Source: Phycisphaerae bacterium (lineage in GTDB: Bacteria; Planctomycetota; Phycisphaerae; Sedimentisphaerales; Anaerobacaceae). Taken from it: 64,000 nucleotides of DNA. Both the position numbers and the translations under genes were made by a program. A model generated the notes under the pieces. It was given only the letters and a program-made list of their open reading frames with translations. It made no database searches and was not told where the DNA came from. This document shows, in pieces, positions 5,358 through 28,642 of the stretch. The stretch's first letter is position 1. Each line of letters begins with the position of its first letter. The stretch covers positions 32,405 to 96,404 of the forward strand of contig JAUXAL010000002.1 of the NCBI GenBank assembly GCA_030619925.1, written 5' to 3'.

Positions 5358-5407
5358 GGGCCTATACCGAATCAATCAGTATAAGCCCCAAACTGATGCA
5401 AATCTGC
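5358..5407 (-). ncRNA. Conserved 3' hairpin element, copy A
   Basis: Lies 37 bases after the stop of the 5445-7799 gene on its coding strand. Read on the minus strand it is CAGATTTGCATCAGTTTGG, then a hairpin GGGCTTATAC / GTATAGGCCC in which every position pairs if one U-G is allowed. Copies B (7938-7987) and C (28585-28630) sit behind the other two discoidin genes. It may be a terminator-like, processing or regulatory RNA structure; no T-run follows. Confidence 0.55.
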
Positions 5408-5444
5408 TGTATCAGCCACGCAGCTAATTGCCGGTTAAATCGGC

Positions 5445-7799
5445 TTACGGCTCTCGAAGCGGATACAAACGAATGTCGTCAAAGTATACTATGCCCGAAC
5501 CGCCGGGTGTCAGATTCGTCTGGTCACCAAAGCCAATAGCAAGCTTCGTGACATTCTGCAGGTCCACGCCGAACAATGCAAGGTCGATATTCCACTCTTG
5601 CCATGATGCCTGCTTTATGTCATCAGCATTGCCGCCATATACAACCTTGGAGCCGTTGACCTTCACATACATCTGCTCAGCAGTATTGTTCGGATCGCCG
5701 TGGAACCATAGCGACAATGCTCCAACGCCATGCCTTGTCCAATCCTGCGGTGGGCTCAGCGGCCGCTCCGCTTCTGAATACTTGAGATTGTTGTCGTAGA
5801 AAAATGGCATCGACTGCAGGCCGCTGTGAACGATAACGGTCTCAGCCCAAGGCGCCTGGTCGTGGGCTATCATGGCACCGTTTGTCTGCGTGCCCCATCC
5901 GTCTATCCACGTATTGAATATCTCGTCGGGCGGATAGTCGTTGTAGTCCTCGAAATCGTCCACAACAAAATACTCGAATGTCGTGAAGTTCCAGACATCG
6001 CCATCCAACATTGTAGGCGTCTCAGCCATATTGACCTCGTTGACCTTCCAGTAGTAAGTCGTGCCCAAATCCAGCGATAAGGGACCATGGCGGGTCTCGA
6101 TCACCGTAGTAACAGGTGCAGTACCGTCTACCACGGCCTGTTCATCAGAGCCGACATACACATCGTGCTCGGCTGCTTCTCTGCCCGCTCTCCAGCTAAG
6201 CGTCACGTCCACGTCCACATCTGTTGCCCTCGAATCCGGGTAAGGCTCTCTTGCAAAGACCGGTATGTGGAAGAAGCGAACCTCACTGAGGCCATATTGG
6301 GGCAGCATTCCTCCCCAGTTGCTTTTAGCTGTGAGCTTCACATACTTCGCTGTGAGGCCACCGAAGTCAACAGTGCTATTGTGTGCGTAGTCGGGCGTGC
6401 CCGGCGCCCGGACAAATTCATAGTCACCCAGTACCATCCAGTCGTTGCCGTCAGTCGAATACTCTATGGTAGCATCCTGGACCCCGAAACCTACAAAAGA
6501 CTCAACGGAGCTATTATGGTTCCATACCAGCATCTCATACAGTTTATAAACCCTGTCGAACTCATACTGGATCCAGGTTGGCTGCGGCCCGGTTGTACTA
6601 CTGAGCCACATATCTGTAGTTTTTACCGAGTGAAGGTCATTAGCATCCAGTCCTGAGCCGTTGATGGTATTTTCAGGTCCTTCATTTGCGCTGCTGGAGC
6701 TGGAAGCGGTGGCGGCGATATTCTCAGAAGGCATGGGATGAGCGAACAGCTCAGCCGTGAAGCTCCAGACGCTACCTTTGTAGATTGTAAAGTCCGGCGG
6801 GGCGTTCACTTCATCGACACGCCAGTAGTAGGTCTGGCCGAATTGGAGAAGTTCAGCAGGACTATAGCTGTTAGCATCCTGGTTCCGGCTTACCAGCACA
6901 CCGAGCGGGTAATCTCTGTCAGCATCGTTGACATCGTCAAAATTAGTGCCGAAATACACATCATGTTTGTCGGCGTACTTGCCCGGCATCCAGCTAAGGA
7001 CCACATCCCGAGGCACATCTGTTGTCCCATCAGCAGGGTTCTGCCTAAAAGCAAAGTCACTTTCACCTATCACAAGGCTCATAACCTCGGCTTCTGAGAG
7101 CGCATTGTCGTAGATACGGATATCGTCAATCAGGCCGATGAAACTGTTGGAGAATGATGGATGTGAGACTCCGCCACCAATGCGTACCCGCTGGCCTCCG
7201 GCGTCAGGGCTGTTGTCGAGACTCTTTTTGGCGTCAGGATTGCCATCGATGTACAAGGTCCATCCCTCAGTTTCCGCAAAGCTGTGGCTCTGGACGAGCG
7301 CCACGTGATGCCACTCGCCGTCGTTGACCGTCGCCAAGCTATCTATGCTCGTGACAAAAACGTTGTCATAGCTCACTTTCCCGATGTGCACGTCGTCGCG
7401 GTTCACGCCCAGCGTAGGGGTTTGTTCCATGTCAATGGAGTGATGCCCACTATTTCGCACGTTCGTCAAGATGGTCATTTCCTTGGTGGCGGTTGTCTTA
7501 ATCCATACTGATATCGAGATATCAGTATCGCCAAATTCGATCGCTTGGGAGCCAGCAGCCTCAACATAGCTTCGAATCGCGACCCCGCCACTAAACTGCA
7601 GACATGTACCATACACTCCGTCGTTTGACCATTGCACATCACCGGTGAAAGTGCCGTCATAGTTGTTACCGGAGCTGTCAACTGTGGCTGTCCCTAAACC
7701 CTCATCAAACCTCCAGTGACCCACCAGATCACCTCTCGCACCGGCGGCCAAACCCAGCACAAGAATAAAAGAAACAAAAGAAATCGATTTTTTAGACAT
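5445..7799 (-). CDS. Secreted LamG / discoidin (F5/8 type C) modular protein
   Basis: A 784-residue exported protein. Order of parts: signal peptide (SFVSFILVLGLAAGARG); LamG/concanavalin-like domain about 24-240 (LVGHWRFDEG, GEWHHVALV, IDDIRIYDNALSEAEV); Fn3-like module about 245-345 (DVVLSWMPGKYADKHDVYFG, TYYWRVDEV); F5/8 type C discoidin domain about 350-505 (ENIAATASSS, MWLSS, YVKLTAKSNWGG, GLSEVRF); second Fn3-like module; C-terminal beta-sandwich about 610-784 (VDDFEDYND, YFDDIRLYPL). Such proteins bind carbohydrates outside the cell; no catalytic domain or PEP-CTERM tail is seen. ATG 7799 is preceded by AGGAGG. The core from the first Fn3-like module onward is closely shared with the next gene and with 28722-31145. 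Confidence 0.85.
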   Translation of the reverse strand: MSKKSISFVSFILVLGLAAGARGDLVGHWRFDEGLGTATVDSSGNNYDGTFTGDVQWSNDGVYGTCLQFSGGVAIRSYVEAAGSQAIEFGDTDISISVWIKTTATKEMTILTNVRNSGHHSIDMEQTPTLGVNRDDVHIGKVSYDNVFVTSIDSLATVNDGEWHHVALVQSHSFAETEGWTLYIDGNPDAKKSLDNSPDAGGQRVRIGGGVSHPSFSNSFIGLIDDIRIYDNALSEAEVMSLVIGESDFAFRQNPADGTTDVPRDVVLSWMPGKYADKHDVYFGTNFDDVNDADRDYPLGVLVSRNQDANSYSPAELLQFGQTYYWRVDEVNAPPDFTIYKGSVWSFTAELFAHPMPSENIAATASSSSSANEGPENTINGSGLDANDLHSVKTTDMWLSSTTGPQPTWIQYEFDRVYKLYEMLVWNHNSSVESFVGFGVQDATIEYSTDGNDWMVLGDYEFVRAPGTPDYAHNSTVDFGGLTAKYVKLTAKSNWGGMLPQYGLSEVRFFHIPVFAREPYPDSRATDVDVDVTLSWRAGREAAEHDVYVGSDEQAVVDGTAPVTTVIETRHGPLSLDLGTTYYWKVNEVNMAETPTMLDGDVWNFTTFEYFVVDDFEDYNDYPPDEIFNTWIDGWGTQTNGAMIAHDQAPWAETVIVHSGLQSMPFFYDNNLKYSEAERPLSPPQDWTRHGVGALSLWFHGDPNNTAEQMYVKVNGSKVVYGGNADDIKQASWQEWNIDLALFGVDLQNVTKLAIGFGDQTNLTPGGSGIVYFDDIRLYPLREP

Positions 7800-8042
7800 A
7801 ATAGCCCTCCTTTTAGAGCCATTGGAACTTGCCGTGCCTTGGCCAGAGGCCATAAGTTACCAATACTTAATTCCGAGGACCGACCTTTTATGCCGAGCAG
7901 CTATGAGACTCTGTCCTGCCGGACACACACTCCAAGGGGGCCCGCACCGAATCAATTGGTATGGGCCCCGAACTCATAGGAATCTGTCAGTGCAACGACA
8001 TAATTATTCGGTCGTTACTCGTTAACAACGTTTACATCCATG
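7800..8042. other. Intergenic region with hairpin element B
   Basis: Region between two discoidin genes on the minus strand. It contains the AGGAGG ribosome binding site of the downstream gene and hairpin element copy B. No other gene is seen. Confidence 0.5.
7938..7987 (-). ncRNA. Conserved 3' hairpin element, copy B
   Basis: Lies 55 bases after the stop of the 8043-11138 gene. Minus-strand hairpin GGGCCCATACC / GGTGCGGGCCC with loop AATTGATTC, preceded by ACAGATTCCTATGAGTTCG. It has the same length (50 nt) and layout as copy A. One A-C mismatch remains in the stem; the other changes keep pairing through G-U. Confidence 0.55.
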
Positions 8043-11000
8043 TCAAAACGGATTGTCAAACGGCTTAATCCTGCCGGCAAGCCACGCTACCTCAGCATCA
8101 GACAACGCACGCTCGTAGATGCGAACTTCGTCAATCAGACCACTGTACCATCTCTGGGCTGCAGAGTGGCGACGACCTATGGTGACATCATAGCCAGCTA
8201 CCACATTTAACGCATCCGGGTCTGTAGTTTTCCTGGTGTCATCCTGGCCGTTAAGGTAAAGTTTAACGTCCGGATATGAGATCGTGGCGTTCTCTTTTAC
8301 AGTTACCGCAACGTGGATCCATTCATTGTCAGGCAAAGTATTGTCACCTTGGACATTGCCTCCGCTCTCACAGCGCAATCTGTCTTCGTTAATCCGGAAT
8401 TCCACTCTTGAGACCCCGCCGGGGGTGCTGCCCCAGCCCATAATATCACCATTGCCACTGGTATTAACCCACGCAGTGATGCTGAACGCAGGCTGGACAC
8501 TATTCGGGTCATTGGGGTCAGCAATACAGATGCCCTTATAGCCGGTTATCTCTACATAGTCGCCAACACCATCAAGGCTAATGGCCTGGCCGAGCCTGCC
8601 AGCTACAAAATTGGGCTCGCCCATTATAGTGCCGTGGAGGCCGTTGACAGAGCTGTCGTTGGCAGTGCCTTCAAATTCGTAGTGTGCTACAAGAGAAGCG
8701 GTGTCGGGCTCAGTCGGCGTGACCAACTGACGGTCATAGGCATATAGCCGGATATCGTCAAGGTAAATCACTCCCTTACCACCAACTGCTCCGCTACGCT
8801 CAAGGCCAATACTTAACTCGGTAACATTGCTAAGGTTCACGCTAAAATCTGCCAGGTTAATATTCCACGGCTGCCACGTTGTTCGCGCTAAGTTAGCGGC
8901 TTCGCCATCGTATAGTACCTTAGAGGCGTTGAGCTTTACATACATCTGCTCTGTAATGGCATTGTTCGGATCGCCGCGGAACCATAGCGACAATGACTTA
9001 ATGCCGTGCCTAGTCCAATCCTGTGGTTGGCTCAGCGCCAGCTCTGCCTCTGAATATCTTGCCGTGCTGGAGTTGTCGTAGAACAGCGGCATCGACTGAC
9101 CGCCACTGTGAACGATAGTTTGCTCGGCAAAAGGCGCAGCAGAATAGCCGACGATAGAACCGTTTGCCGGCTGCTCATATCCGTCTATCCACGCGCTAAA
9201 TATCCTGTTGCTGTTGGGATCATCGGGGTCAAGGTCGTTATAACTCTCAAAATCGTCCACGACAAGATACTCCTGAGTCGCAAAGCTCCAGATATCCCCT
9301 GCCCAACTGGTGGGCGTTTCGGCCTCGTTGACCTCGTTAATCTTCCAGTAATAAGTCTGGCCTAATTCAAGCTCTCCGGTGTCATAGCTGGTCTCGGAAA
9401 CGCTAACAACAGGGGCAGTACCATCTATCACTGCCTGCTGGTCGGTGCTAAGCTGCACTTCGTGCAAAGCTGTCTCTCTTCCTGCTCGCCAGCTAAGAGT
9501 CACATTATCCACGTCCATATCTACCGTCCCGGAACTTGGTATAGGCTGACTTGCCAAAACGGGTACGTAGGAGAAGCGGACCTCACTCAGACCCTTCTGC
9601 GGGGCAACGCCGCCCCAGTTGCTATTGGCAGTGATCTTGACGTATTTCGATACCACACCGCTAAGATCAACCGTGGTATTGACTGCCGAACCAGCCGTAC
9701 CGGGAGCCCGGGCAAATTCAAAGTCACCCAGTGCCGTCCACTCGTTGCCGTCAGGCGAATACTCAATGGTAGCATCTTTGACGCCGAAACCGAGAACAGG
9801 CTCAAGGGAGGTATTATAGTTCCACACCCACATCTCATACAATTTATAAACGTCGTCGAGCTCATACTGGATCCAGGCCGCGTTAGGATCTGCTGCACTA
9901 CTGAGCCACATATCCGTCCCTTCCGCCGAGTGAAGGTCATCAGCATCCAATCCCGAGCCGTTCACGGTATTTTCAGGCCCTTCATCTGGGCTGTTGGAAC
10001 TGGAAGCTGTGGCGGTGATATTCTCAGAAGGCAGTGTATAAGCAAATGGCTCGACCGTGAATTGCCAGACCTTGCCTTTATAGACCGTAAAGTCAGGGGC
10101 AGGGCCGACCTCATCGATACGCCAGTAGTAAGTCTGGCCGAATTGGAGAACTTCAGCAGGACTATAGCTGGTAGAATCCTGGTTTTGACTTACGAGCACA
10201 CCGAGGGGGTTATCTCTGGTAGCATCGTTGACATCGTCAAAATTGCTGCCGAAATATACGTCGTGTTTATCGATATCCTTGCCCGGTGTCCAGCTAAGCG
10301 CTACATCCCGCTGCACACCTTTTGCCCCGTCGGCTGGCCCCAGGATGGCGGCTTCCGGCAGCATCTCGCCGATATAGACCGTGCAGCGGTCGTAGTTGGC
10401 GGTGCAGCCGTCTTCCTGCGCAAATGCTGAGACATAGCAGTCATTATCGAGCAGGTCACTCAGAAAGGTCTCCGCCAGGCCGGAACCGACCCAGGTATTC
10501 GATTCGGTAAAGATGGTGGGTGTGCCGCTGGGGTCGTTCAACCCAGTGACTTTGTATGACCAGCCCGTTTGGCTGATAGTGAATTCGGCGGTAAAGCCGT
10601 CGTTCCAAGAACTTGGCTCGTATGGTCGCTGGGTTGAAATGATCGTTCGCGCTATACCTCGGGGGGGATCTCTAAAACGCACCGCTAGCTGGTCAGTGCC
10701 GGCTTGGGCTCCGCTGAAATTCAGGCCGATATGGGGCAGAGTATTGAAGAATACAGTATCCGTCTGTATCATGTAGGTGTTGCCGTTAGCGTGGACGTCC
10801 GGCCCGATACTGGTGACGACCCACTTGACGGTCAGACCCTCGGTCAAGGCCGCCTCGCTGAGCGGATCGAAGCTGGCGTTACTGACGATGCCGGTATTGG
10901 CATTATTGGCGCCGAGGGTGCTCACCTCGGCATTAGAGCCGGTCTCGACGGCGGTGCTCTCGGCTGCTCCCAGTGCATTTGTAACGAGCGTGAACCCGCC

Positions 11001-11138
11001 GTTGACCGACGCGGCGTCGCCGATGTCCAAGCCTTCCCCGTTAAAGTCATCGTCGATCAGGATTTGCAACGACCACGCACTACCGGCCAGAGACAACACC
11101 AAAACAAAAGAAACCAAACAAATCAATTTTCTACACAT
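8043..11138 (-). CDS. Secreted discoidin / LamG modular protein
   Basis: A 1031-residue exported protein with signal peptide MCRKLICLVSFVLVLSLAG. Residues about 25-275 form a unique N-terminal beta-rich domain (LQILIDDDFNGEGLDIGD onward). Then follow the same modules as the neighbour: Fn3-like (DVALSWTPGKDIDKHDVYFG), discoidin (ENITATASSSN, GLSEVRFSYV), second Fn3-like (NVTLSWRAGRE), C-terminal sandwich (VDDFESYNDLD, YLDDIRLYAYD), and finally a LamG domain (LVAHYEFEGTANDSSVNG, IDEVRIYERALSDAEV). LamG is at the C-terminus here but at the N-terminus in 5445-7799, which shows module shuffling. The start has AAGGAGG ahead of ATG 11138, preferred to the in-frame TTG-type start at 11165. Likely surface carbohydrate binding; no catalytic residues recognised. 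Confidence 0.85.
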   Translation of the reverse strand: MCRKLICLVSFVLVLSLAGSAWSLQILIDDDFNGEGLDIGDAASVNGGFTLVTNALGAAESTAVETGSNAEVSTLGANNANTGIVSNASFDPLSEAALTEGLTVKWVVTSIGPDVHANGNTYMIQTDTVFFNTLPHIGLNFSGAQAGTDQLAVRFRDPPRGIARTIISTQRPYEPSSWNDGFTAEFTISQTGWSYKVTGLNDPSGTPTIFTESNTWVGSGLAETFLSDLLDNDCYVSAFAQEDGCTANYDRCTVYIGEMLPEAAILGPADGAKGVQRDVALSWTPGKDIDKHDVYFGSNFDDVNDATRDNPLGVLVSQNQDSTSYSPAEVLQFGQTYYWRIDEVGPAPDFTVYKGKVWQFTVEPFAYTLPSENITATASSSNSPDEGPENTVNGSGLDADDLHSAEGTDMWLSSAADPNAAWIQYELDDVYKLYEMWVWNYNTSLEPVLGFGVKDATIEYSPDGNEWTALGDFEFARAPGTAGSAVNTTVDLSGVVSKYVKITANSNWGGVAPQKGLSEVRFSYVPVLASQPIPSSGTVDMDVDNVTLSWRAGRETALHEVQLSTDQQAVIDGTAPVVSVSETSYDTGELELGQTYYWKINEVNEAETPTSWAGDIWSFATQEYLVVDDFESYNDLDPDDPNSNRIFSAWIDGYEQPANGSIVGYSAAPFAEQTIVHSGGQSMPLFYDNSSTARYSEAELALSQPQDWTRHGIKSLSLWFRGDPNNAITEQMYVKLNASKVLYDGEAANLARTTWQPWNINLADFSVNLSNVTELSIGLERSGAVGGKGVIYLDDIRLYAYDRQLVTPTEPDTASLVAHYEFEGTANDSSVNGLHGTIMGEPNFVAGRLGQAISLDGVGDYVEITGYKGICIADPNDPNSVQPAFSITAWVNTSGNGDIMGWGSTPGGVSRVEFRINEDRLRCESGGNVQGDNTLPDNEWIHVAVTVKENATISYPDVKLYLNGQDDTRKTTDPDALNVVAGYDVTIGRRHSAAQRWYSGLIDEVRIYERALSDAEVAWLAGRIKPFDNPF

Positions 11139-12199
11139 GATATGCCTCCTTAAAAAAGTTAACATAATTTAGGTTTTGCCTACACAACAAAAGCCTACTT
11201 GTCCAGGTCGTTTTCAACAAGCACCGAATACAGAAGGCAGAATACAGTATGTACGACACACGCTAATTTTCAATTCCGACTTCTGGCTTCTGACTTCTTT
11301 GATCTTATTTCGAGCCTGTCTCAAACACCCTCAACAAGACAACCGATAAAAACTTGCACCTTTAGTAAATTCCCTGCATGCCCAGGACAACTTTGATATG
11401 ACTTTGCTTAACCTCCTTCCTTACAAAAGCCCAATACGGGCGGTTACTTGAAATGCAAAAATCTTCACTCTCAGGCCCCAGCGACTCCCGTCGCAAGACG
11501 GGGCTGCGGGGCGGCACAAAGCCCCTATACAACTCTGTGCCTCGCATAATAACTCCTCCTCTATCGAAAAACTACAAAGACTTGTCTGACGTCGACAGTC
11601 AAGATTCCACAGGTTAGCGGGGCAAAATCCGCAAATACGTGCCTACGCAGGCACACGCTTACTCAATTTTATTTATATCAAATTAACCACCTTCTCGTCA
11701 ACGAAAATCTCAAAAATTTATGCAAGACGACTCCGACAACCAGCACCCTAACACAGAACGACCATCGTCAAGCTAACGACCGGTTAACAAATAATTAAGA
11801 TGTCGTACAAAAGACTCATTCTTAGCTGAAAAAGGACACCTATGAAGAGCTCAAAGTCAAATAGTAAAATGCTCGTTGCCACAAGAGTTTTCTTTGAGGC
11901 ATCCTCGTTACGACACATCAGCAAGCCACCAACCGAGAACGGTCATTGAATCCATTATCCAAAAACCTGCATTTTTTCGCCAAAATCAAGGGGGGACAAA
12001 TTCAACTTACTGCCCAATATAGCGGACACTAACCTTATGTATTACAAACCTGAGGTCATCAGAGAAACAAATTCCGCTGAGCTGGTTTGGCTTGGCTTTC
12101 CCTCACTGCGGTATCATATTAAGGTGGTTTCACGAGAGTTGGTGATTGTACATAAACAAGAATGGAATTTTCGATAGGGACAGCCCTTTGAAAGGACAG
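11139..12199. other. Gene-poor region of about 1 kb
   Basis: No convincing gene. A 61-codon minus-strand frame (11362-11547) has a GAGGAG-like site but no recognisable family. An inverted repeat (CTCCCGTCGCAAGACGGGG, around 11489-11507) and GTGCCTACGCAGGCAC (around 11640-11655) could form small hairpins. The region probably includes the promoter of the discoidin gene, but no clear -35/-10 pair is visible. Confidence 0.4.
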
Positions 12200-12202
12200 A
12201 TG

Positions 12203-12345
12203 ATGGCGAAGAAAAAGAAAAAAAAGCAGCAAAAAAGAAAACGGCAAAGAAAAAAGTCGCTAAGAAGAAAGTAGTGAAAAAGAAAGCCAAGAAAAAAACA
12301 AAGAAGAAAAAAGCTAAGAAGAAAAAGAAGAAAGCCAAAAAGTAA
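12203..12345 (+). CDS. Lys/Ala-rich histone-H1-like small protein, requires -1 frameshift
   Basis: ATG 12203 (or 12200), with AAAGG upstream, opens a frame that stops at 12272-12274 after 23 residues. In the -1 frame from 12226 the sequence continues as an uninterrupted lysine/alanine-rich tail (AAKKKTAKKKVAKKKVVKKK and onward) to TAA 12343-12345, giving about 47 residues with the shift. The switch falls on A AAA AAG (12220-12226), in phase. Such AKKK-repeat proteins resemble bacterial histone-H1-like (Hc1/KdgA-type) DNA-binding proteins. Either the 8-A run has lost one A (mutation or sequencing) or slippage makes the long form. A strong terminator follows at 12372. Confidence 0.55.
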
Positions 12346-12371
12346 AGAAACGACAGCCTAACATAAAACCG

Positions 12372-12412
12372 ACTGAAGGTTTTCACAATATTGTAGAACC
12401 TTCAGTTTTTTT
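12372..12412 (+). terminator. Rho-independent terminator
   Basis: Perfect 10-bp stem ACTGAAGGTT / AACCTTCAGT (12372-12381 and 12397-12406) with a 15-base loop, directly followed by a run of seven T (12406-12412). It lies 27 bases after the Lys/Ala-rich gene on the same strand. Confidence 0.85.
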
Positions 12413-12574
12413 GTGTACACATGGATAGTATATAAATCCCACCAAAACCGAGTATGCAATAGACCTTATTATAAGACGACGTATGGTCATAGAACGGTTA
12501 TCTATTGTTGTAAAGACACGCAGCCTGATTCGTATTCGGTGATATTTGGCTATGCTGTAAATCAAAGATTAGCT

Positions 12575-13702: not shown

Positions 13703-13816
13703 CCCAGTAACAAACTGGATTCCCGATCGCGGGAATAACAGCTCACAAAATTAAATGTCATAGAGTACTAGTTCTGTACCACAGGTTTTGGTATCAATCT
13801 GAGGCGCAAGGCAAAT

Positions 13817-14320
13817 ATGAAACAGAGAAGACCAAACACTACGACAAAACTGAAGGCCCTAAAAGCCTTCGATTACGAAGATAAAATGCTCTGGGCGGCT
13901 GCGAACTGCTTGTACGAGCAGACAAGAGGCGGTGAAAAGTACCCAGAGCCGGTTGTCAATGCTTTGGTAGAATCATTCGCGGCGCACAGCCGTGTGCTTA
14001 TTGAGTTTCTCTACCCCTCGAAGAACGTCCATCCTGATACTATCTTAGCTCGACATTTTTTCTCGCCCAACGAGAGGTGGTTGAGAATCTGCCCTAAAGA
14101 ATCTCTGTTAATGAGAAGCACGAGGAAGCTTGCCAACAATCATCTTGCTCATCTGACTTATACACGGTCTGAAAGTAAACTGAACAAAAGATGGCTTTTT
14201 GTCAAGATCGCGAAAGAACTTGGAGCAGTTCTGAAGATCTTCAATGAAACTACCGAGATTCAGGCACTGCGTCAGGCTGTAGGCCGAAGAAGGCAACGGG
14301 GAAATAAATTTGGGGGGTAA
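13817..14320 (+). CDS. Hypothetical protein, basic and helical
   Basis: 167 residues, family not recognised. The sequence is rich in Lys/Arg at both ends and mostly helical in the middle (NALVESFAAHSRVLIEFLYP, KRWLFVKIAKELGAVLKIF). There is no signal peptide and no clear catalytic motif. Natural-looking composition and an uninterrupted frame argue that it is or was a real gene, but the ribosome binding site before ATG 13817 is weak. It sits head-to-head with the truncated recQ, so it may be part of whatever replaced the missing recQ sequence. Confidence 0.5.
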   Translation: MKQRRPNTTTKLKALKAFDYEDKMLWAAANCLYEQTRGGEKYPEPVVNALVESFAAHSRVLIEFLYPSKNVHPDTILARHFFSPNERWLRICPKESLLMRSTRKLANNHLAHLTYTRSESKLNKRWLFVKIAKELGAVLKIFNETTEIQALRQAVGRRRQRGNKFGG

Positions 14321-14354
14321 ATTAGCTTTTAGTTTTGAATTTTGAGCTGGAGGC

Positions 14355-14387
14355 CCCAGTGAGATAGATGGAAATCATCTCACTGGG
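14355..14387. repeat. Perfect inverted repeat
   Basis: CCCAGTGAGAT and ATCTCACTGGG, 11 bp each, separated by 11 bases. No T-run follows on either side, so a simple terminator is not supported. Confidence 0.7.
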
Positions 14388-14617: not shown

Positions 14618-14671
14618 ATATAGAACATAGAAATTAAACGTGCTGACTTTTTGATGGATTGGTACCGGCAC

Positions 14672-14863: not shown

Positions 14864-15134
14864 GGTCGTTTTTTGTTGATTTTTGTTTGAAAATGTGTTA
14901 AAATAGCCGCTTGTTTGTCAGCAGGCAAACATAAACCGCCAGCAGGCGAAAGATAACCGCTAGAAAGCCCAGCCAAATAACCAATTAACCACTTAACCAA
15001 ATTAACCATATTAACTAAATTAACCAATGAACCATCACAACCATCGAGAATCCAGTATCGAGTATCCAGAATCGAGTATCCAGAATCGAGTATTAAGAAT
15101 CGAGAATCCAGAATCGAGTATCGAGCAACGAATT

Positions 15135-15478
15135 ATGCAAAACAAACCCAATTTCCGAAAAAGTCAAATGAACGTAAGTATCTTTTCAAAAAAGGCTTAT
15201 GAAAATAAATCCAATTGGACACTTGGTGAAAACAAACCCAATTCAAAGCCAATCAAAGCCAATTTCCGAAAAGCCCAAATGAATGTAAACTCACTTATAA
15301 CAAAGGATTACAGAAAAAAAGATGATTTCGCAGTCCAAAAAAACAAACCCAATTCAAACCCAATTTCTGTAAAGCCCAAAATGAGCGCAAACTCACTTTT
15401 AACAAAGGATTATGAAAATGAAACCGCCTTCGGACTCCGGGAAAACAAACCCAATCAAACCCAATTTCAAACGCGACG
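15135..15478 (+). repeat. ENKPNSNPI repeat element, copy 1
   Basis: Begins ATGCAAAACAAACCCAATTT and runs through about three units of roughly 100-110 bases, each opening with tandem CAAACCCAATTC-like steps. In the plus frame the units read NWTLGENKPNS, KAQMNVNSLITKDYRKKDDF and KDYENETAFGLRENKPN. The same start and unit order recur on the other strand at 62815-63279. Peptides of this type recur in planctomycete genomes (my recollection); whether the element is translated is unknown. Here its frame runs on into a heparinase remnant. Confidence 0.7.
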
Positions 15479-20533: not shown

Positions 20534-20549
20534 TGTATCCTTCCTTTGC

Positions 20550-21554: not shown

Positions 21555-21601
21555 TGTTCAAAGAATTCCGTAATAATTTTTTCCCAGTCGCATTTACAAA
21601 A

Positions 21602-23035
21602 TCATTCAAATTTGTTCATGCCATTTTTCAAAATGTCACTCATTTCGGCGCAGACATCAGCAAATTCAGGCAGTTCAGCAAGGTTGCGATATTCTCCGGG
21701 ATCGCTTTCGTGGTCATAGAGTTCTCTTGCTACGAGCTTGCCATCATCCCACTCGATGTACCGCCAGCGTTTTGTACGAATACTCATACCATTTAGGTTG
21801 CCGCGTCTTCTAACCTGAGTGAAAGCAGCTTTCTTCCATCTTTGCTCAGGCTTACTCAGTAGAGGCCTGAAACTGATACCTTCCAGGTTATCAGGAACTT
21901 TCAGGCCACAAAGGTCTGCGAAAGTCGGGTAGAGGTCAACCAGCTCAACAAATTTATCGCATACAGAATTAGGTTTAGTTTCACCTTCTACTACGGCGAT
22001 CATTGGTACCCTTGTGGAATCTTCAAATAATACATTCTTATTCCACCAGTGGTGTTCACCAAGATTGTAACCATGGTCTCCAACAAACAAGACTATGGTA
22101 TCTTGCCATAGTTTTTGTCTGTCTAACTCATCAAGTACCCGGCCTACCTGTGCATCCATGAAGGACACACAAGCATAGTATGCTCTTAAGTATTCCCGTT
22201 TATCCTGTAGAGTAAATTTGTCAAAGGATCTCTTCCATGCACTTGCGATCGTATATTCGGCCTCAGGAGTTCTGTTTTCCGGAACCACAGGCGGCATCAG
22301 TTCGTTCAGTGGATACAGATCAAAATATTTCTTCGGAGCATCAAATGGATCATGAGGCTTGGCAAATCCTAATGCTACAAAGAAGGGTTTATCTCTGTTT
22401 TCTCTCATAACCTCTATCGCTTTTGTTGCTAACAATCCGTCCTGATGGTCTTCGTCGGCACCCTCAGCGGCAAGCCAGCTACACCATTTAACTTCTCCTC
22501 CGGTCATATTTCTTCCTTCGCCTGTTGTGCCGATAGGTTTTGTTCCCATATCAAAAGTTTCGCTCCACGCCTCAACATCATCGTGTTTGTTTATGCCATG
22601 GAATACCTTGTTCAGGCGTGCCGTGTAATATCCATTTTCTTTGAATAATTTTGGTAGAGTTGTGCATCCTGACAGGTTTGTTGACCATGGCATAACATTG
22701 TCATAAATGCCTATTGTATCAACTCTTAATCCGGTCATAAAGGAAGACCTGCTTGGGTTACATACAGGGTACTGGCAGTAAGCACGGTCAAATCTTAGAC
22801 CTTTACGGGCCAGCCTGTCGATATTAGGAGTTTTGACGAGCGGATTTCCATAACAGCATAATACATTTTTCAGGTCTTCGACGATAATAAATAAGACATT
22901 CTTCCTTTTGCTATTACCGGCTAAGGAATTCCTGGATAGTGCAGGTTTTGTCTGAGTCATAGCAGTTGCCGAATAATTGCCGGCAACAATTCCTCCAAGC
23001 GACCATTTAACAAAATCTCGTCTGTTTGCCTTCAT
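21602..23035 (-). CDS. Type I sulfatase, iduronate-2-sulfatase-like, Tat-exported
   Basis: 477 residues. Signal-like N-terminus MKANRRDFVKWSLGGIV with RRDF; metal-binding segment LFIIVEDLKNVLCCYGNP; active site C92-N-P-S-R96 with SSFMTG following; later HDPFDAPKKYFDLYP and VLFVGDHGYNLGEHHWWNKN. The V-E-D-L and GEHHWW segments are typical of iduronate-2-sulfatase-like (S1) enzymes, but the actual substrate is unknown. The symporter stop codon (23037-23039) is one base upstream of this ATG, so translational coupling is likely. A formylglycine-generating enzyme must be supplied from elsewhere in the genome. Confidence 0.92.
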   Translation of the reverse strand: MKANRRDFVKWSLGGIVAGNYSATAMTQTKPALSRNSLAGNSKRKNVLFIIVEDLKNVLCCYGNPLVKTPNIDRLARKGLRFDRAYCQYPVCNPSRSSFMTGLRVDTIGIYDNVMPWSTNLSGCTTLPKLFKENGYYTARLNKVFHGINKHDDVEAWSETFDMGTKPIGTTGEGRNMTGGEVKWCSWLAAEGADEDHQDGLLATKAIEVMRENRDKPFFVALGFAKPHDPFDAPKKYFDLYPLNELMPPVVPENRTPEAEYTIASAWKRSFDKFTLQDKREYLRAYYACVSFMDAQVGRVLDELDRQKLWQDTIVLFVGDHGYNLGEHHWWNKNVLFEDSTRVPMIAVVEGETKPNSVCDKFVELVDLYPTFADLCGLKVPDNLEGISFRPLLSKPEQRWKKAAFTQVRRRGNLNGMSIRTKRWRYIEWDDGKLVARELYDHESDPGEYRNLAELPEFADVCAEMSDILKNGMNKFE

Positions 23036-23036
23036 T

Positions 23037-25079
23037 TTATCGCCCTTGAAAAATTATAGTTTTCTCATATTCTTCTTCGTAGTTTGTCTCCGGTAATTGT
23101 TTATACCAGAACAGATACAGCCCGATCAGGCTGATAATAAAGATCGGTAGCGTGACAAAGAACGCGTGCCATGAACGAATGATAAGCTGCATAGGCAGCA
23201 AAAAGAGCGTCACCTGCCACACGATCGCAAATGGCAGCGAGAGCACATCGTAGAAATGCTCCTTCTTCATTCTTTGCTGCACGTCCTCGGGTAGGCAATC
23301 CTTCAAAGGTTTCCACCACCCGAACGGGCGCGTGGTCTGATAGAAGTGCTCCAGCACCTTCCTGTCAGTAGGCTTGGTGACATATGTCCCAAAGATAGAG
23401 CCAGCAAAGCCAATTGTCATCGTAAGGAGGAATTGCCCCCTTGGATCGACAAGGAACCAGACAAGATCGATACCCGCGAACATATATTGCGCATCTTCCG
23501 GAAGATTGCCAGTTACGATCCTGATCAGGACGGCTCCGATCATTCCGATTGCGGTTCCTATCGCGAAGGCTCCGCCGTTGAATCGCCACCAGTAAAATCT
23601 AAGAGTCATGCCGACAACGAGTCCCCCGCCGAGCGCCATGATGAACCAGTCCCATATCTCGTTAATGCTTTTAACGCTGTAGCCGAACAAAAAGCCCGTG
23701 CCCACGAGAGCAAAGATAAATATCCATGTTGCGTAGATCAGTTCCTTGTTGGTTGCTTTTGGCCTGATGTATCTTTGATAGATGTCACGTGTGAAGTAGC
23801 CTGCGGTCATGTTTACTATGAAGTCGAAAGTCGACATGGAGGCGGCGATCAATGCTACCAGTATTAGACCTCTGCATCCTGCGGGGATGTTGAAGAGGAT
23901 AACCGCGGGGAGAATTCTTTCGGGGTTTACCGTTCCTTCGAAGCTGACCAGGTGCAGTTTATTCTGCCAATCGTCCTGCAGTATTGCTTTTAGGCCATCC
24001 ACGAGTTGGGGAGAATAATTTTCCGGGTTTAGTGTTATCCCGGCGGTGATATCGGCCCAGCGGCTTTGTTCGATATCTGGGAAATGGGTTTTTATAAGTT
24101 CCGCCGCCTGGGTCAGTACGCTTTGGTCGGGGAAAATATCTTTAACCAGAAATAAGCCAAGGATCGCAAACGCCATCATCATGGGCCAGCGGAACATCAT
24201 CAGCCAGGTCCACAGGAATGTGAGCGTGCCGCATTCACGGTCGTTTTTTGCGCCGAAATATTTCGGCTCGCCACCTGAACCCATCCCGAAAAAGATGTTC
24301 CTCATCAGATAGAACATCGCGAAGATCATCAGGTGCCTGTACATCTCGTAGCCCTTGGGCATCTGGGTTTCCCAGCTTAGCTTCGATGTGATCCATCCCG
24401 AGTTGCCCGTTACTTCCTGGGACAGTGCGACAAGTTCCTCGGAGCTGCCCAGTTTAAGTATCGCCATCGTGGTTATACCGATGACCGCGCCCAGGATGAT
24501 AAGCGACTGGAAGAGGTCGGTGTAAACGACGCCGTAGAAACCTGAGATAACGGTGTATAGTGTCGCGACGCCGATCATGATCAGCGAGCACTGCAGGGGC
24601 GTAAACGGAAAGAACATCGAAAGGAACAAACCCACACCTTTTACCAGGTATGCCAGCATGCCGAGCGTTGATACAATGCCTGCTATCGCGCCGACCGTTC
24701 TAGCGAATTGCCCGCCGAAGCCGTCACCGAAGCGGTAAACCATCCATTCGGCGTTGGTGATGCACCTGCTTCTTCGGTGCCACTTACCTGACCATAGCAG
24801 CATCACGGTAAGTATCAGGACGGCCCCTCCTCTAAACTCAATAAACAATCCTCTTGGGCCAAGCATGTAAAGGAAGGAAACTATGATCATTGTCCCTGTG
24901 ATATCGAGGAACTGAGCCATTCCCGTTATGCCGAGAGCCCACCATGGAAGTTTGCGTCCACCAAGAAAATAATCTTCAAGGCTTTCAGATGCTTTCTTTC
25001 TAAGATACAAACCCAGACCAACCAGAAATCCAAAATAAACAAGAATTACTGTATAGTCGATAGTGTTGAGACCGCCCAT
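23037..25079 (-). CDS. Sodium:solute symporter (SSF family)
   Basis: 680 residues, strongly hydrophobic with many transmembrane helices. The N-terminus TIDYTVILVYFGFLVGLGLY and the segment DYFLGGRKLPWWALGITGMA are the SSF family signature; GFYGVVYTDLFQSLIILGAV is also typical. SSF proteins import sugars, sugar acids or other solutes with sodium. ATG 25079 has AAGGAG five bases upstream; the TTG just before it is too close to that site. In this cluster it is the only visible importer and probably brings in products of extracellular desulfation and cleavage. Compared with usual members (about 500-550 residues) it is long, with extra helices at the C-terminus. Confidence 0.9.
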   Translation of the reverse strand: MGGLNTIDYTVILVYFGFLVGLGLYLRKKASESLEDYFLGGRKLPWWALGITGMAQFLDITGTMIIVSFLYMLGPRGLFIEFRGGAVLILTVMLLWSGKWHRRSRCITNAEWMVYRFGDGFGGQFARTVGAIAGIVSTLGMLAYLVKGVGLFLSMFFPFTPLQCSLIMIGVATLYTVISGFYGVVYTDLFQSLIILGAVIGITTMAILKLGSSEELVALSQEVTGNSGWITSKLSWETQMPKGYEMYRHLMIFAMFYLMRNIFFGMGSGGEPKYFGAKNDRECGTLTFLWTWLMMFRWPMMMAFAILGLFLVKDIFPDQSVLTQAAELIKTHFPDIEQSRWADITAGITLNPENYSPQLVDGLKAILQDDWQNKLHLVSFEGTVNPERILPAVILFNIPAGCRGLILVALIAASMSTFDFIVNMTAGYFTRDIYQRYIRPKATNKELIYATWIFIFALVGTGFLFGYSVKSINEIWDWFIMALGGGLVVGMTLRFYWWRFNGGAFAIGTAIGMIGAVLIRIVTGNLPEDAQYMFAGIDLVWFLVDPRGQFLLTMTIGFAGSIFGTYVTKPTDRKVLEHFYQTTRPFGWWKPLKDCLPEDVQQRMKKEHFYDVLSLPFAIVWQVTLFLLPMQLIIRSWHAFFVTLPIFIISLIGLYLFWYKQLPETNYEEEYEKTIIFQGR

Positions 25080-25127
25080 CAATTCTCCTTAATTTATGAA
25101 TAATCCTGATTAGCCGATTTTAACGTC

Positions 25128-28022
25128 TTACGGCAGAAACTCAATGGTCAAAATCTGCTTTGGCTTGATTTCAAAGTCCACCCAACCGTCACTGCTAAGC
25201 TGCAAATCTTTTACCGGGACTTCTTCTAATGTTACCTCTTTGACCTTCGTCCATTTTCTCGTTGATGCAGGAAGTGAGTATTCATTTTGAATAGCTTCGA
25301 CAGGTGACATTGTCTTGTCTGGATTGGCAAGACCTCCATTTAGCCTTAGTTTGTTTGTGATAACACTGTCAAATGGATTGAACAGGCGAACTATCCAGCC
25401 GTTGCCGTCCTCACCTTTCTTAATTGCGCTGACATGCAATTGCTCTTTTTCAAGTTCAAGGAAGGATTTCTCAAGCGGCTCAGTGCCGTGGCTTGTAGGG
25501 GCTATCTGGGCTACCAGCATCCCAAGATTAAATTTCTCTGATTGGTTCCACAGGTTTGCTTTTGCCCAGTCTCCACTATGCGGCATAACAGCATAACGGA
25601 AACTGTGCCTGCCAATGCACTGTGAACTCTTATCTATATCACTGTAATCAGTCATTTCCTGGGTCACACAGATTCGCAGCGGGAAACATCTCAGCAAAGT
25701 CAGACATAAGGTTCTTTCAGGGTCGTTAAGCACTTCGTATGCTTTGAGTCCCTCATTTAAAAGAGCAAGTCCTGCCTTGCCGTCACTTAAGTCCACGAAA
25801 GAGTTCATTGGCTGTTCTGGTTGTGGGGCCTCATCAAATATGGAGTAGTCGATATCCTTAAGAGACCTTTCGACAACATCAAACTGTCCCTGAGCAAATA
25901 CTCTGTCTGTTTTGACCTCTGAGGGAAAGCATACCTGCAGGTAATGATCTTCTGCGCAGTTGTCGATTTCAGTTGATATCTCAACCCATGGCTGGGCCTT
26001 TCTCAGAGTGACAGTGTTAATTATCCTGTAATCTTTGAGATGCTTGCTTCTGTTCTTATCATCCTTTGTCCTGCCCTCAGGAAGCTGCCAGTCAATAATA
26101 ACTCTGTAAGATGCTTCAAGGGCCGTGTCTTTAACAAGCTCTGCCCTGGCATTGGTATTGCCTGTTGTGAAAACCTCCTCATTCTCAACAGCCTGGTGCT
26201 CCCATGGATTGCCAATTTCACTGGAATCCTTAAAATATCCCTGGTTTTTGAAAGTTCTGCCTGTTTCTTTGTGATAGAGGTTTAATGTTCCGTTTGGATT
26301 CACTTTTACAGACAAATACTCGTTCTCCATGGTTTGTGGGGCTGTGATCATCGAAATCTTGTTGCTCTGCTTTTCTTCTTCTACAGGTTTTGCGAAGAAT
26401 GTTCGATACCCCATGCCCGGCACATCTTCAAAGTATACATCAACAAGATACCTGACCATCTCAAACATATTCGTACAGTCATTAGGCGACTGAACTATCT
26501 GATAGAAGGAATCGTCTTTTTCTATGGTCGCAAATGGAACCTTATTGCCTCCCTCATCTACGATATCAATTGTTTCGCATTCCCACTCTCTCGGTATTTG
26601 GAGATATACCTGCATTGTTTCAGAACGCTTAAACGCAGTAGGATTATATGCGACTATAGCAACTGGGCCATGTTTGTCTGTATCGACCTTGATTGAGCCT
26701 GCGATCTCTTTGAGGGCATTTTCCATTACGCATGAAGATATTTCTCTTGACTGTCTGCTTCTGAAGATCATATCTTCGCTGATGATTTCTCTGCTGCATC
26801 CGCCAATTGAGTCATGTCCGTGATTTTGAAGAAGCCAGTTATATGCCTTGTCAATAAAGCCTTGAGGATAGACAGAGCCCAGAAGTGAGGAAAATACTGC
26901 AAGTGGTTCAGCCAAAGATATTAGGTCACGCTCAGTGCGGAAATTGTCCTGCTTGACGTCCATCCTGGCTGAAATTATCCATCCAAATAATGGACTTGTG
27001 CTTCCTTCGGTAAATAAGTGTCTCATCTCTCCCTTGGCAATTGGCAGATCATCTGGAACAGACCGGCAGACTGATTCCTGGAAGTCATAGAAATTGCTGT
27101 GGAATACTTCGGCCACGCCGTCAAGGGCAGCATTGGCGTCTTTGATCATCTCAATTTCTCTGATGTCAGGACAGGATGAGTCGTGCCCGCAGGACCAGAA
27201 GCGATGCGGGGTTGTCCAGTCATTGTCCTGTTCGGCTATAGCTTGTTTTGCTCTTTCTGGTACAGTCTCTTTGTTGTAGTTGAATGCCGGATGACAGTAT
27301 TGAGCGTCCAGAAGGTGGTGTTGCGGATCGATCATCTTAAACCCACCGTGTCCGTTGAACCAAGACACCATTCTGTTTCCGACATTCCGTTCGTTCCAGT
27401 ATGCCGGTCTTTGTAATACATACCACACATTATATCTTGGCCTGTGCCCGAGTCTTGATGCGATAACTTGTGTGCCGTCAGCACCTTCCCAGATTATTTC
27501 TGAGCGAGGAGCAACTAAAGTATTGATACCCCTGTAAAAAGCGGTGAAGTTGATACCAAAGCCTTTATATATCTGAGGCATCTGGGATATCTGGCCCCAG
27601 GAGAAAGGAGAATAGCCGGTCTTAGTCACATGACCAAATTCTTTGCCTATCTTGTGCCCTAATAATAAGTTGCGTATGAGCGACTCACCAGATACACAGT
27701 ATTCATCAGGAAGGCAGAACCACGGTCCGATGTATAGCCTTTTTTCTTTTACCATATCCTTTATTGTTTGCTCTTTTTCCGGCCTGACCTCCAGATAATC
27801 ACGTATAGGCACTGTCTGGGAGTCCAGATGAAAAGAGCAGAACTGCGGATATTTTTCGAGGATATCAAGCAGCATATCCATCATGTGCACCAGCATGTGG
27901 CGGGTTCGCTGCATTGAGAATCGCCATTCACGGTCCCAGTGAGTATTAGAGATGAAGTGGCATTGAATCACCTTCTTGTCCTGCCCCTGTTTTTTGCACC
28001 TGTATGTTTGAGAGTCTCTCAC
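25128..28022 (-). CDS. GH38-like protein with Phe at the nucleophile position
   Basis: 964 residues. The N-terminal HFISNTHWDREWRF carries the zinc pair His28/Asp30, and the general GH38 layout continues (SGESLIRNLLLGHKIG, WGQISQMPQIYKGFGI). In active GH38 enzymes the segment reads like GYxPDxFGxxxQxPQ, with Asp as nucleophile and zinc ligand; here it is GYSPFSWGQISQMPQ, so Phe140 replaces Asp. The protein may be catalytically altered, a binding protein, or use another residue. C-terminal beta domains typical of the family follow. GTG 28022 is chosen because GGAG lies 7 bases before it; TTG 28076 and GTG 27971 are in-frame alternatives. First gene of the minus-strand cluster, 48 bases before the symporter. 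Confidence 0.82.
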   Translation of the reverse strand: MRDSQTYRCKKQGQDKKVIQCHFISNTHWDREWRFSMQRTRHMLVHMMDMLLDILEKYPQFCSFHLDSQTVPIRDYLEVRPEKEQTIKDMVKEKRLYIGPWFCLPDEYCVSGESLIRNLLLGHKIGKEFGHVTKTGYSPFSWGQISQMPQIYKGFGINFTAFYRGINTLVAPRSEIIWEGADGTQVIASRLGHRPRYNVWYVLQRPAYWNERNVGNRMVSWFNGHGGFKMIDPQHHLLDAQYCHPAFNYNKETVPERAKQAIAEQDNDWTTPHRFWSCGHDSSCPDIREIEMIKDANAALDGVAEVFHSNFYDFQESVCRSVPDDLPIAKGEMRHLFTEGSTSPLFGWIISARMDVKQDNFRTERDLISLAEPLAVFSSLLGSVYPQGFIDKAYNWLLQNHGHDSIGGCSREIISEDMIFRSRQSREISSCVMENALKEIAGSIKVDTDKHGPVAIVAYNPTAFKRSETMQVYLQIPREWECETIDIVDEGGNKVPFATIEKDDSFYQIVQSPNDCTNMFEMVRYLVDVYFEDVPGMGYRTFFAKPVEEEKQSNKISMITAPQTMENEYLSVKVNPNGTLNLYHKETGRTFKNQGYFKDSSEIGNPWEHQAVENEEVFTTGNTNARAELVKDTALEASYRVIIDWQLPEGRTKDDKNRSKHLKDYRIINTVTLRKAQPWVEISTEIDNCAEDHYLQVCFPSEVKTDRVFAQGQFDVVERSLKDIDYSIFDEAPQPEQPMNSFVDLSDGKAGLALLNEGLKAYEVLNDPERTLCLTLLRCFPLRICVTQEMTDYSDIDKSSQCIGRHSFRYAVMPHSGDWAKANLWNQSEKFNLGMLVAQIAPTSHGTEPLEKSFLELEKEQLHVSAIKKGEDGNGWIVRLFNPFDSVITNKLRLNGGLANPDKTMSPVEAIQNEYSLPASTRKWTKVKEVTLEEVPVKDLQLSSDGWVDFEIKPKQILTIEFLP

Positions 28023-28157
28023 TGTTCTTCTCCATGTCTTGATTGAAACCGAGCATAGGATAACGCACCGCCGCAAACGCAGCCGAGGTCAGAAATCTGA
28101 GGCTGCTGTGCTGGCGATAATGATTATAATCCATCCGTCAGCGATCTGCAACATATC

Positions 28158-28433
28158 TCAATTCACCAATACGGCTGGTCTTTTTGCGCGTCCACTTTTG
28201 CTTTCATATGAGGCTTGGCGGTTTTTCCGGCGTATGGTTTTTTTATCATCACGCCCAGCGTTGTTTTGCTTAGAGGCTTCCTCATTTTGAGTTTTGCGTC
28301 TGGGGATTTTCGGTTCAGGCTCTGGAGCGAGTTGATAGGCCTCAATGAAAAATATGATTGCTTCTTCATGTTTCCTGGAACCGAGCGTGCTACGACCTTT
28401 TTGTTCGTACAGAACCGCAAGCTGCTTTTGCAA
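28158..28433 (-). pseudogene. Possible small gene remnant, TPR-like start and Lys-rich tail
   Basis: A 91-codon minus-strand frame reading LAVLYEQKGR, HEEAIIFFIEAYQLAPEPEP, then a basic tail (KKTIRRKNRQ). The middle resembles one half of a TPR helix pair, but nothing firm can be concluded. There is no ATG or ribosome binding site; upstream, the frame hits a stop inside the 35-bp dispersed repeat. Two other frames are also open across the same bases, so it may not be coding at all. Confidence 0.25.
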
Positions 28434-28465
28434 TTGTCGCTCGGTCCTGAGCGTCCGGTAAAGTT

Positions 28466-28500
28466 ACCCTTCCCATGAGTTGCAAAATGTCAATATTCTT
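28466..28500. repeat. 35-bp dispersed repeat, copy 1
   Basis: Begins ACCCTTCCCATGAGTTGC and ends TGTCAATATTCTT. The same sequence, with one extra A, is at 43216-43251. The flanks are unrelated. Confidence 0.7.
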
Positions 28501-28584
28501 CGATAAATTCATGTCACCAAAATGTCTCCAGAGATGTTGATTTTGCTCAGATCGCCCACAAACGAACATCATTACAAACAAACG

Positions 28585-28630
28585 GAGCCCATACCGAATC
28601 GGCATAGGCCCCAAACTGACGCAAATCTGT
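28585..28630 (-). ncRNA. Conserved 3' hairpin element, copy C
   Basis: Lies 91 bases after the stop of the 28722-31145 gene. On the minus strand: ACAGATTTGCGTCAGTTTGG, then stem GGGCCTATGCC / GGTATGGGCTC with a loop 4 bases shorter than in copies A and B. All 11 stem positions pair when G-U is allowed on this strand; on the plus strand several would be C-A mismatches. Confidence 0.55.
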
Positions 28631-28642
28631 CTTATGAACCAC

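What the first reader, a model, noticed from the sequence alone, without database searches (positions are those of the whole stretch)
5358..28630. A shared 46-50 nt hairpin element sits 3' of all three discoidin genes and keeps its pairing only as minus-strand RNA
Copies at 5358-5407, 7938-7987 and 28585-28630 lie 37, 55 and 91 bases after the stops of the three discoidin genes and nowhere else that I saw. They share CAGATT, CAGTTTGG-like and GATTCGGTA-like blocks. Stem substitutions keep pairing through G-U on the coding (minus) strand, while the plus strand would have C-A mismatches. That is what a selected RNA structure looks like; there is no T-run, so it is not a plain terminator. Alternatively the genes were duplicated together with their 3' flank.
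Basis: partly seen in the sequence, partly recalled or inferred. Interest (0 to 1): 0.72.

Follow-up and report, generated by a model that had tools for sequence, protein, structure and literature searches.

The report
Conserved terminator-like element behind secreted-protein genes
A short RNA hairpin found behind three surface-protein genes belongs to a family with up to dozens of copies per genome in one group of uncultured planctomycete bacteria, nearly always just after genes for large, probably secreted proteins, where it most likely ends transcription and carries an extra conserved tag of unknown role.

Summary
The three copies are real but not confined to three discoidin genes. A covariance model finds 39 places (E up to 0.001, echoes removed) in the 4.0-Mb source genome, and matches in 26 of 37 genomes of the same GTDB family but 1 of 24 from other families of the order. 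Layout: 5' box (near GATTTGCAYCAATTC), 14-bp hairpin, T-rich tail. Of 109 copies, 96 lie sense-strand downstream of coding sequence, 2 antisense, 11 undecided. With one copy per genome (27), 10 of 14 pairs change on both sides; 0 of 500 shuffles match this. G-U outnumbers A-C 122 to 12. The element is 73-79% identical between copies within genomes, the adjoining coding ends 26-46%, so plain co-duplication does not suffice. A terminator score (recalled formula) is positive in 96 of 103 sense, 11 of 103 antisense and 45% of random-tail draws. Best reading: a sequence-conserved intrinsic terminator with an extra box, serving mainly one class of modular, probably secreted proteins. Termination and the box's role are untested. 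Many of these genes also share a conserved start region.

The parts
5341..5414 (-). Copy 1, whole model match: box 5390-5406, hairpin 5357-5389, T-rich tail from 5356 downwards
   Evidence: R1 87.0 bits; RNA fold z -5.07; terminator-like site
7921..7994 (-). Copy 2: box about 7970-7986, hairpin 7937-7969, tail from 7936 downwards (weakest tail of the three)
   Evidence: R1 62.0 bits; fold z -2.18 on minus, -2.80 on plus; not flagged by the terminator scan
28568..28637 (-). Copy 3: box 28613-28629, hairpin with shorter loop 28584-28612, tail TTTGTTTGTA
   Evidence: R1 63.3 bits; fold z -4.55; terminator-like site with 14 pairs
5445..7853 (-). Gene before copy 1: LamG + F5/8 type C protein; likely true start at 7799 (MSKKSISFVSFILVLGLAAGARG), preceded by AGGAGG
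   Evidence: ORF; Pfam; start context
8043..11165 (-). Gene before copy 2: F5/8 type C + C-terminal LamG; a Met 9 codons in starts the signal-peptide-like MCRKLICLVSFVLVLSL
28722..31145 (-). Gene before copy 3: F5/8 type C protein starting MCKKLISLASLIMVFGL
31140..31162 (-). Start module of gene 3: match to TTTGAAGGAGGAYTATTATGTGY with 3 mismatches
   Evidence: C129:63544-63566

Best explanation
The element is the transcribed 3' end of mRNAs for one class of large modular, probably secreted proteins in one family of uncultured Phycisphaerae. RNA polymerase copies the gene, then an unpaired box (near GATTTGCAYCAATTC), then a 14-bp hairpin with a G+C-rich base, then a U-rich stretch (such as GGUUGUUUUU or GUUUGUUUU). 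Hairpin plus U-rich tail releases the polymerase, so the element acts as an intrinsic terminator and leaves a 3' end closed by a stable stem. Shown by comparison: position, orientation, sense-strand structure with covariation, T-rich tail, association with these genes, near restriction to the family. Inferred: that it really terminates. Inferred more weakly: that the conserved box and the near-invariant stem base are recognised in trans (by an RNA-binding protein, a termination factor or a small RNA), which would make these genes a regulon marked at its 3' end.
For: Sense-downstream placement: 96 same, 2 opposite, 3 mixed, 8 without data, of 109; random positions 867 same, 810 opposite. Independent hairpin-only pattern scan: 25 same, 2 opposite, 5 without data, of 32; box matches at least 12 of 15 letters in 18 of 32, against 1 of 640 control sites. 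Covariation: 97.9% of 378 cells paired, 10 of 14 pairs changed on both sides, 0 of 500 shuffles as high; slid versions at most 47.4% paired. G-U 122 vs A-C 12 over 103 copies. Terminator score (recalled formula, same two registers for all): positive in 96 of 103 sense, 11 of 103 antisense, 923 of 2060 random-tail draws; 6 or more T in the first 12 in 82 of 103; sense hairpin more stable in 86 of 103, equal in 7. Mean identity within genomes: element 0.73-0.79, coding end 0.26-0.46, spacer 0.37-0.54, after the element 0.13-0.20 (71 copies). Upstream proteins: LamG in 30 and F5/8 type C in 19 of 72; downstream genes: LamG in 5 of 95, F5/8 not among the 25 families shown. In G058, another family without the element, 3 of 6 flanks examined show an ordinary hairpin with poly-T 16-30 nt after the stop, with no shared sequence found.
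Against: No RNA data: neither transcription nor 3' ends were seen. The U-tract is interrupted and short in many copies (longest T run 3 or less in 47 of 103). The score is positive for 45% of random tails, and with one fixed register only 75 of 103 sense copies are positive; my first version gave the sense strand two registers and the controls one, which overstated the contrast. Most copies outside the source genome were found with a model that already holds box and structure. No partner for the box was found. Only 21 of 77 LamG matches in the source genome have a copy within 3.5 kb downstream on the same strand. G006 and G031, family members with many LamG matches, gave no match. Some copies follow other genes (a sulfatase; TatC at a borderline match).
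Confidence: 0.68

Rival explanations
1. Passive co-duplication: the genes multiplied with their 3' flank, and the element is alike only because the copies are young.
For: Element and coding-end similarity correlate weakly in the source genome (Mantel 0.23, 0 of 300 permutations as high), element and spacer too (0.14, p 0.017). Spacers look homologous within a genome: in G036 9 of 14 copies have 47-48 nt from stop to stem. A shared start region points to common descent.
Against: Coding ends, spacers and downstream flanks have diverged far more than the element; the coding correlation is not significant in G017 (p 0.32), G036 (0.08) and G001 (0.09). The same box and hairpin recur across 27 genomes with compensatory changes and behind C-termini of unrelated kinds.
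Confidence: 0.11
2. Mobile palindrome (REP or MITE type), spread by a Y1/RAYT transposase and tolerated behind genes.
For: About 40 dispersed copies with a directional hairpin and conserved 5' letters; four Y1_Tnp genes in the genome; some copies carry inserts in the loop.
Against: Orientation is fixed relative to the gene, 96 to 2. Nearest copies to the Y1_Tnp genes are 15.5 kb (C75) and about 32 kb (C50) away; C33 and C9 hold none, though there the genes lie near contig ends. G-U over A-C bias and covariation indicate function as RNA.
Confidence: 0.07
3. 3' end-derived small RNA: the box is a seed released with the terminator hairpin and acts in trans on other mRNAs, or the box is a docking site for one small RNA.
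For: Conserved unpaired box directly 5' of a terminator-like hairpin; an optional extra hairpin before the box (z below -2 in 24 of 107, against 4 of 109 stretches after the element and 8 of 97 coding stretches). The exact box pattern is nearly specific to the element: 15 of 17 genome matches lie at copies, though only 15 of the 41 copies have it exactly.
Against: No target or partner identified; the two other box matches were not examined; no expression data. Dozens of near-identical seeds per genome would be unusual.
Confidence: 0.2
4. DNA-level function: an inverted-repeat operator, recombination or uptake site.
For: Near-perfect palindrome, dispersed, with the inner stem base (GGGCC/GGCCC) 96-99% conserved.
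Against: Substitutions favour sense G-U over A-C ten to one; strict 3' sense orientation; T-rich tail on one side.
Confidence: 0.04

Closest known systems
Intrinsic (Rho-independent) transcription terminators
   Same: Position after the stop, G+C-rich stem, U-rich tail, sense strand only
   Different: Ordinary terminators are not conserved in sequence between non-homologous genes (recalled; none shared in the flanks). Here stem sequence and an upstream box are conserved across genera and the copies follow mainly one class of genes
L17 downstream element, RF01708 (Weinberg et al. 2010, PMC2864571; passages seen)
   Same: Structured RNA in the potential 3' UTR of particular genes; strand assigned there too from G-U pairs. 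The paper calls regulation from a 3' UTR structure highly unusual in bacteria
   Different: That one follows ribosomal protein L17 genes in Lactobacillales and Listeria; this one follows up to dozens of modular-protein genes per genome and includes the terminator-like hairpin
Uptake-sequence hairpins used as terminators (passage in PMC2267715; listing)
   Same: A repeated sequence recurs inside terminators across a genome
   Different: There the repeat is a DNA uptake signal paired with its own complement; here orientation to the gene is fixed and the box lies outside the stem
REP elements with RAYT transposases (recalled)
   Same: Directional hairpin with conserved 5' letters, dispersed in tens of copies
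   Different: Fixed gene orientation, no RAYT next to copies
Rhodopirellula-1 motif (named in a table of PMC2864571)
   Same: A candidate structured RNA listed for Proteobacteria and Planctomycetes
   Different: Cannot tell: the table gives it no Rfam number and I saw neither its sequence nor its structure

Membership tests
Intrinsic transcription terminator | Stable G+C-rich hairpin on the transcribed strand | tested here: met
   Median -25.1 kcal/mol over 103 copies; 97.9% of cells paired, covariation
Intrinsic transcription terminator | U-rich tract directly after the stem | tested here: met
   6 or more T in the first 12 in 82 of 103; score positive in 96 of 103 with two registers, 75 of 103 with one, against 45% of random tails; interrupted in many copies
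Intrinsic transcription terminator | Lies downstream of, and on the strand of, a gene | tested here: met
   96 of 109 examined; 2 opposite, 3 mixed, 8 without data
Intrinsic transcription terminator | Ends transcripts in the cell | not testable with these tools
   No RNA data
Any Rfam family | Match at or near the gathering score | tested here: not met
   Window at gathering score: one tRNA only; five loci at E up to 1: a tRNA and a sub-threshold Thr_leader elsewhere in the locus
REP/RAYT elements | Copies flank a RAYT gene | tested here: not met
   Four Y1_Tnp genes, none near a copy; two of them near contig ends
REP/RAYT elements | No fixed orientation to neighbouring genes (recalled) | tested here: not met
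   96 same, 2 opposite, of 109
3' UTR-derived small RNA | Stable short RNA from the mRNA 3' end with trans targets | not testable with these tools
   No expression data; no target found

The most novel reading that the evidence does not exclude
The box plus terminator is the 3' half of a standard frame around an interchangeable coding middle: many of these genes also share, across genera, a ribosome-binding-site and signal-peptide start (MCKKLIYLVSFVLVLGL type), and about half of those examined have a leader hairpin of the form GGY..GCCRR. The bacterium would then keep dozens of adhesin- or lectin-like genes in a common 5'/3' chassis, read by one trans-acting factor at the 3' box, and could gain new surface proteins by recombining new middles into the frame.
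Probability: 0.2. Interest if true: 0.75.

Novelty: new variant of a known kind. Interest (0 to 1): 0.5.

Why it matters
Intrinsic terminators are usually treated as interchangeable hairpins without sequence memory. Here a terminator-like element is conserved in sequence across genera, carries an upstream box, and marks mainly one class of genes (large modular, probably secreted proteins), up to several dozen times per genome. If the box is read in trans, it would be a gene-class tag at the 3' end of bacterial mRNAs; at the least it is a practical marker for a set of secreted-protein genes in bacteria that have not been cultured.

Tried and rejected
Box-loop pseudoknot (box ATCAAT with loop ATTGAT in some copies): mean longest pairing 4.89, above shuffled loops (4.22) but within the range of loops swapped between copies (mean 4.71, highest 4.95); 19 of 103 copies have loops of 4-5 nt; rejected. 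Box-tail pairing (5.04) is slightly above swapped tails (highest 4.97) but equal to shuffled tails (5.02); not pursued. A universal second hairpin before the box: only a modest excess; kept as optional. Element as a general property of LamG genes: rejected, since several genomes of other families with over 50 LamG matches have none. A second 3' hairpin family: 4 copies in the genome, not pursued. Literature: the listings of searches showed no description of this element; one search returned no paper at all, and most subscription papers are not in the library. I read only passages of two papers; the others were seen as listings with the starts of abstracts.

Limits of the counts. Model R1: 24 copies; of the 30 loci, two were reverse-strand echoes and five were left out (loop inserts L017, L024, L028; broken L021; shortened L027), and window copy 2 was added. 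Context test: 41 own copies, of which 39 reach E 0.001, one has E 0.31 (C20) and one (C118:8293) rests on BLAST; C8:23653 is borderline and matches on both strands. The other 68 come from the 73 rows (3 echoes and 2 of G055 left out). The 103-copy set is what remains of the 135 matches after 29 echoes and 3 identical sequences were dropped; one search was given 96 sources, so only 10 of the own copies are in it. One search used 71 copies with an ORF within 260 nt; its identity measure depends on length (random 55-mers 0.16, 80-mers 0.12, 240-mers 0.04). The 72 proteins are those with a same-strand ORF within 260 nt, cut to the last 520 codons, from a simple ORF caller; single-contig genomes such as G017 look frame-shifted, so the strand test used codon bias. 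'Secreted' rests on a loose N-terminal heuristic (59 of 68 upstream genes, but also 45 of 83 downstream genes) and on domain types; the starts were chosen by a similar rule (56 genes), so one search is no test of secretion. Dockerin-like and most C-terminal labels are by eye; Pfam gives Dockerin_1 in 1 and PEP-CTERM in 1 of 72. The structure string was off by one column; one search is the corrected count. Of the 20 loci, four gave no ORF and several flanks were cut.
Full report
Observation. They are the only window matches to a model of the family at E up to 0.01, and the shared blocks are there. Two details fail: copy 2 folds as well on the plus strand, and the tails are T-rich, so the terminator scan flags copies 1 and 3, though not copy 2.

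Family. BLAST of copy 1 against the source genome (4.02 Mb, 141 contigs) gave many further places. From 24 copies I built a covariance model R1 with 74 positions and 12 pairs. R1 finds 39 distinct places at E up to 0.001 in the source genome, my count after removing reverse-strand echoes of the palindrome. In 61 genomes (own and relatives) it matches in 27: 26 of 37 of the same family and 1 of 24 from other families of the order, with up to 49 matches per genome, echoes included. In an even sample of 299 genomes of the class it matches in 15: 14 of the 25 family members listed plus the same outlier (stricter filters). An exact hairpin pattern scanned over 84,980 species gave 32 stretches, all titled MAG: 30 Planctomycetota, Planctomycetes, Phycisphaerae or Phycisphaerales, one 'bacterium', one 'Anaerolineales'; the last may be mis-binned (inference).

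Anatomy. Alignments within genomes and one copy per genome give: a box near GATTTGCAYCAATTC, then about GGGGCCTATRCYGA, a loop (4-15 nt in the 103-copy set), about TCGGYATRGGCCCC, then a T-rich tail. Nine box columns are 79-92% conserved and four 53-61%; the inner stem base is 96-99%; the outer flanks are 29-53%. Because R1 contains the box, I checked it on the hairpin-only scan: 18 of 32 have at least 12 of 15 box letters and 28 of 32 at least 9, against 1 of 640 control sites with at least 12. In the source genome 15 of 17 exact matches to a 13-letter box pattern lie at copies.

Selected as sense RNA. With one copy per genome, 97.9% of 378 cells pair, 10 of 14 pairs have a change on both sides, and none of 500 shuffles reaches the observed value on any of five measures; slid structures pair at most 47.4%. 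G-U pairs outnumber A-C 122 to 12 in 103 copies; counted once per genome and pair, 55 to 12; in the 24 source-genome copies 29 to 3. A mutational strand bias could add to this asymmetry but would not produce double changes.

Where it sits. Codon-bias reading of the 900 bp before each of 109 copies (41 own, 68 in four single-contig relatives) gives 96 same strand, 2 opposite, 3 mixed, 8 without data (contig ends, masked stretches or no clear signal); random positions give 867 same and 810 opposite. In the 32 loci of the pattern scan: 25 same, 2 opposite, 5 without data; for one of the opposite cases (L112) and one without data (L103) the printed flank shows the box on the other strand. By eye the C-termini before it are of several kinds: dockerin-like, LamG ends, DDIRLY ends, TLEIARREDG ends, PEP-CTERM (L222, L080, L095). 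Pfam gives LamG in 30, F5/8 type C in 19, and CBM9, PEP-CTERM, sulfatase and TatC in 1 each, of 72 upstream proteins; among 95 downstream genes LamG is in 5.

Not just duplication. Within four genomes (31, 16, 14 and 10 copies) the element is 0.73-0.79 identical on average, the last 240 nt of the gene 0.26-0.46, the spacer 0.37-0.54, the 80 nt after it 0.13-0.20; random sequences of like length give 0.16 (55 nt), 0.04 (240 nt) and 0.12 (80 nt). Element and coding similarity correlate significantly only in the source genome, weakly.

Terminator. With the d'Aubenton Carafa score, whose formula I recalled, and the same two registers for all, 96 of 103 copies are positive in sense, 11 of 103 in antisense, and 923 of 2060 random-tail draws. 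My first run treated the controls less generously and is superseded. With one register 75 of 103 sense copies are positive. So the hairpin alone carries much of the score and the tail adds to it. In G058, another family without the element, 3 of 6 LamG-gene flanks show an ordinary hairpin with poly-T soon after the stop, and no sequence shared among the flanks was found. The element thus seems to fill the terminator's place; what is unusual is its conserved sequence, its box and its gene class. LamG genes are everywhere in the order (61 of 61 genomes), and in the source genome only 21 of 77 LamG matches have a copy within 3.5 kb downstream, so the element is neither a trait of all LamG genes nor limited to them.

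What stays open. Why the box is conserved. I found no convincing pairing partner in the element, no Rfam relative, and no transposase next to copies. The Rhodopirellula-1 motif named in PMC2864571 could not be compared. I think a trans-acting reader is the most likely cause, but nothing here shows it.

A lead beyond the finding. The same genes often share their 5' ends across genera: a TTTGAAGGAGGAYTATTATG start and a MCKKLIYLVSFVLVLGL-type signal peptide (56 genes whose starts were chosen for a signal-like N-terminus). A 23-nt pattern has 51 matches with up to 3 mismatches (20 exact) in the source genome and none for the reversed control; part of it is ordinary Shine-Dalgarno sequence. Of the 51, 18 have the 3' element 0.5-7 kb downstream on the same strand, 3 the second hairpin family, 14 run into a contig end within 2.5 kb and 16 have neither; a rough chance estimate is 3%. 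A leader hairpin of the form GGY..GCCRR occurs in 26 of 56 leaders, against 4.4% of shuffles.

Verdict. A real 3' RNA element that I found neither in Rfam nor in my literature searches: a sequence-conserved, terminator-like hairpin with a 5' box, marking mainly modular, probably secreted protein genes in one Phycisphaerae family. A new variant of a known kind.

Noticed in passing
Own genome C92:7931-8004, C41:31153-31217, C41:33779-33852, C38:7714-7788: A second shared hairpin (GGGCCCACGCC..GGCGTGGGCCC, then GTATT); the C92 and C41:31153 copies lie behind LamG genes, the other two were not examined.
   Followed up: partly
5' ends of the element-bearing genes, e.g. window 31140-31162 and about 7799-7815: Conserved ribosome-binding-site and signal-peptide start, plus a leader hairpin in about half, shared across genera.
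   Followed up: partly
G000 C80:27966-28081, C70:7804-7918, C39:5741-5854: Copies about 40 nt longer than the rest; in the first two a second hairpin (CCCATTTTGC..GCAAAATGGG) sits inside the loop.
   Followed up: no
L010, L011, L015, L016, L226: A different recurrent repeat (around CCCCGCACCGTGATGCGGGG..GGCGGGAATGACAT) just before several copies, suggesting mosaic intergenic repeats.
   Followed up: no
G006 and G031: Family members with many LamG matches but no match to the element; the five G031 flanks read have hairpins, the three readable G006 flanks weaker ones, with no shared sequence found.
   Followed up: partly
G036 copies (L175-L184, L217-L224): In 9 of 14 copies with a called gene the stem starts 47-48 nt after the stop, and an AGGCT..AGCC hairpin often precedes the box.
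   Followed up: no
L115 (SOIH01000181.1): One copy on a contig labelled Anaerolineales, behind a gene of the usual type; mis-binning or transfer.
   Followed up: no
window 15029-15140 and 62820-63286: Tandem and near-tandem repeats (ATCGAGTATCCAGA units; units with TTTGGGTTTGAATTGG).
   Followed up: no
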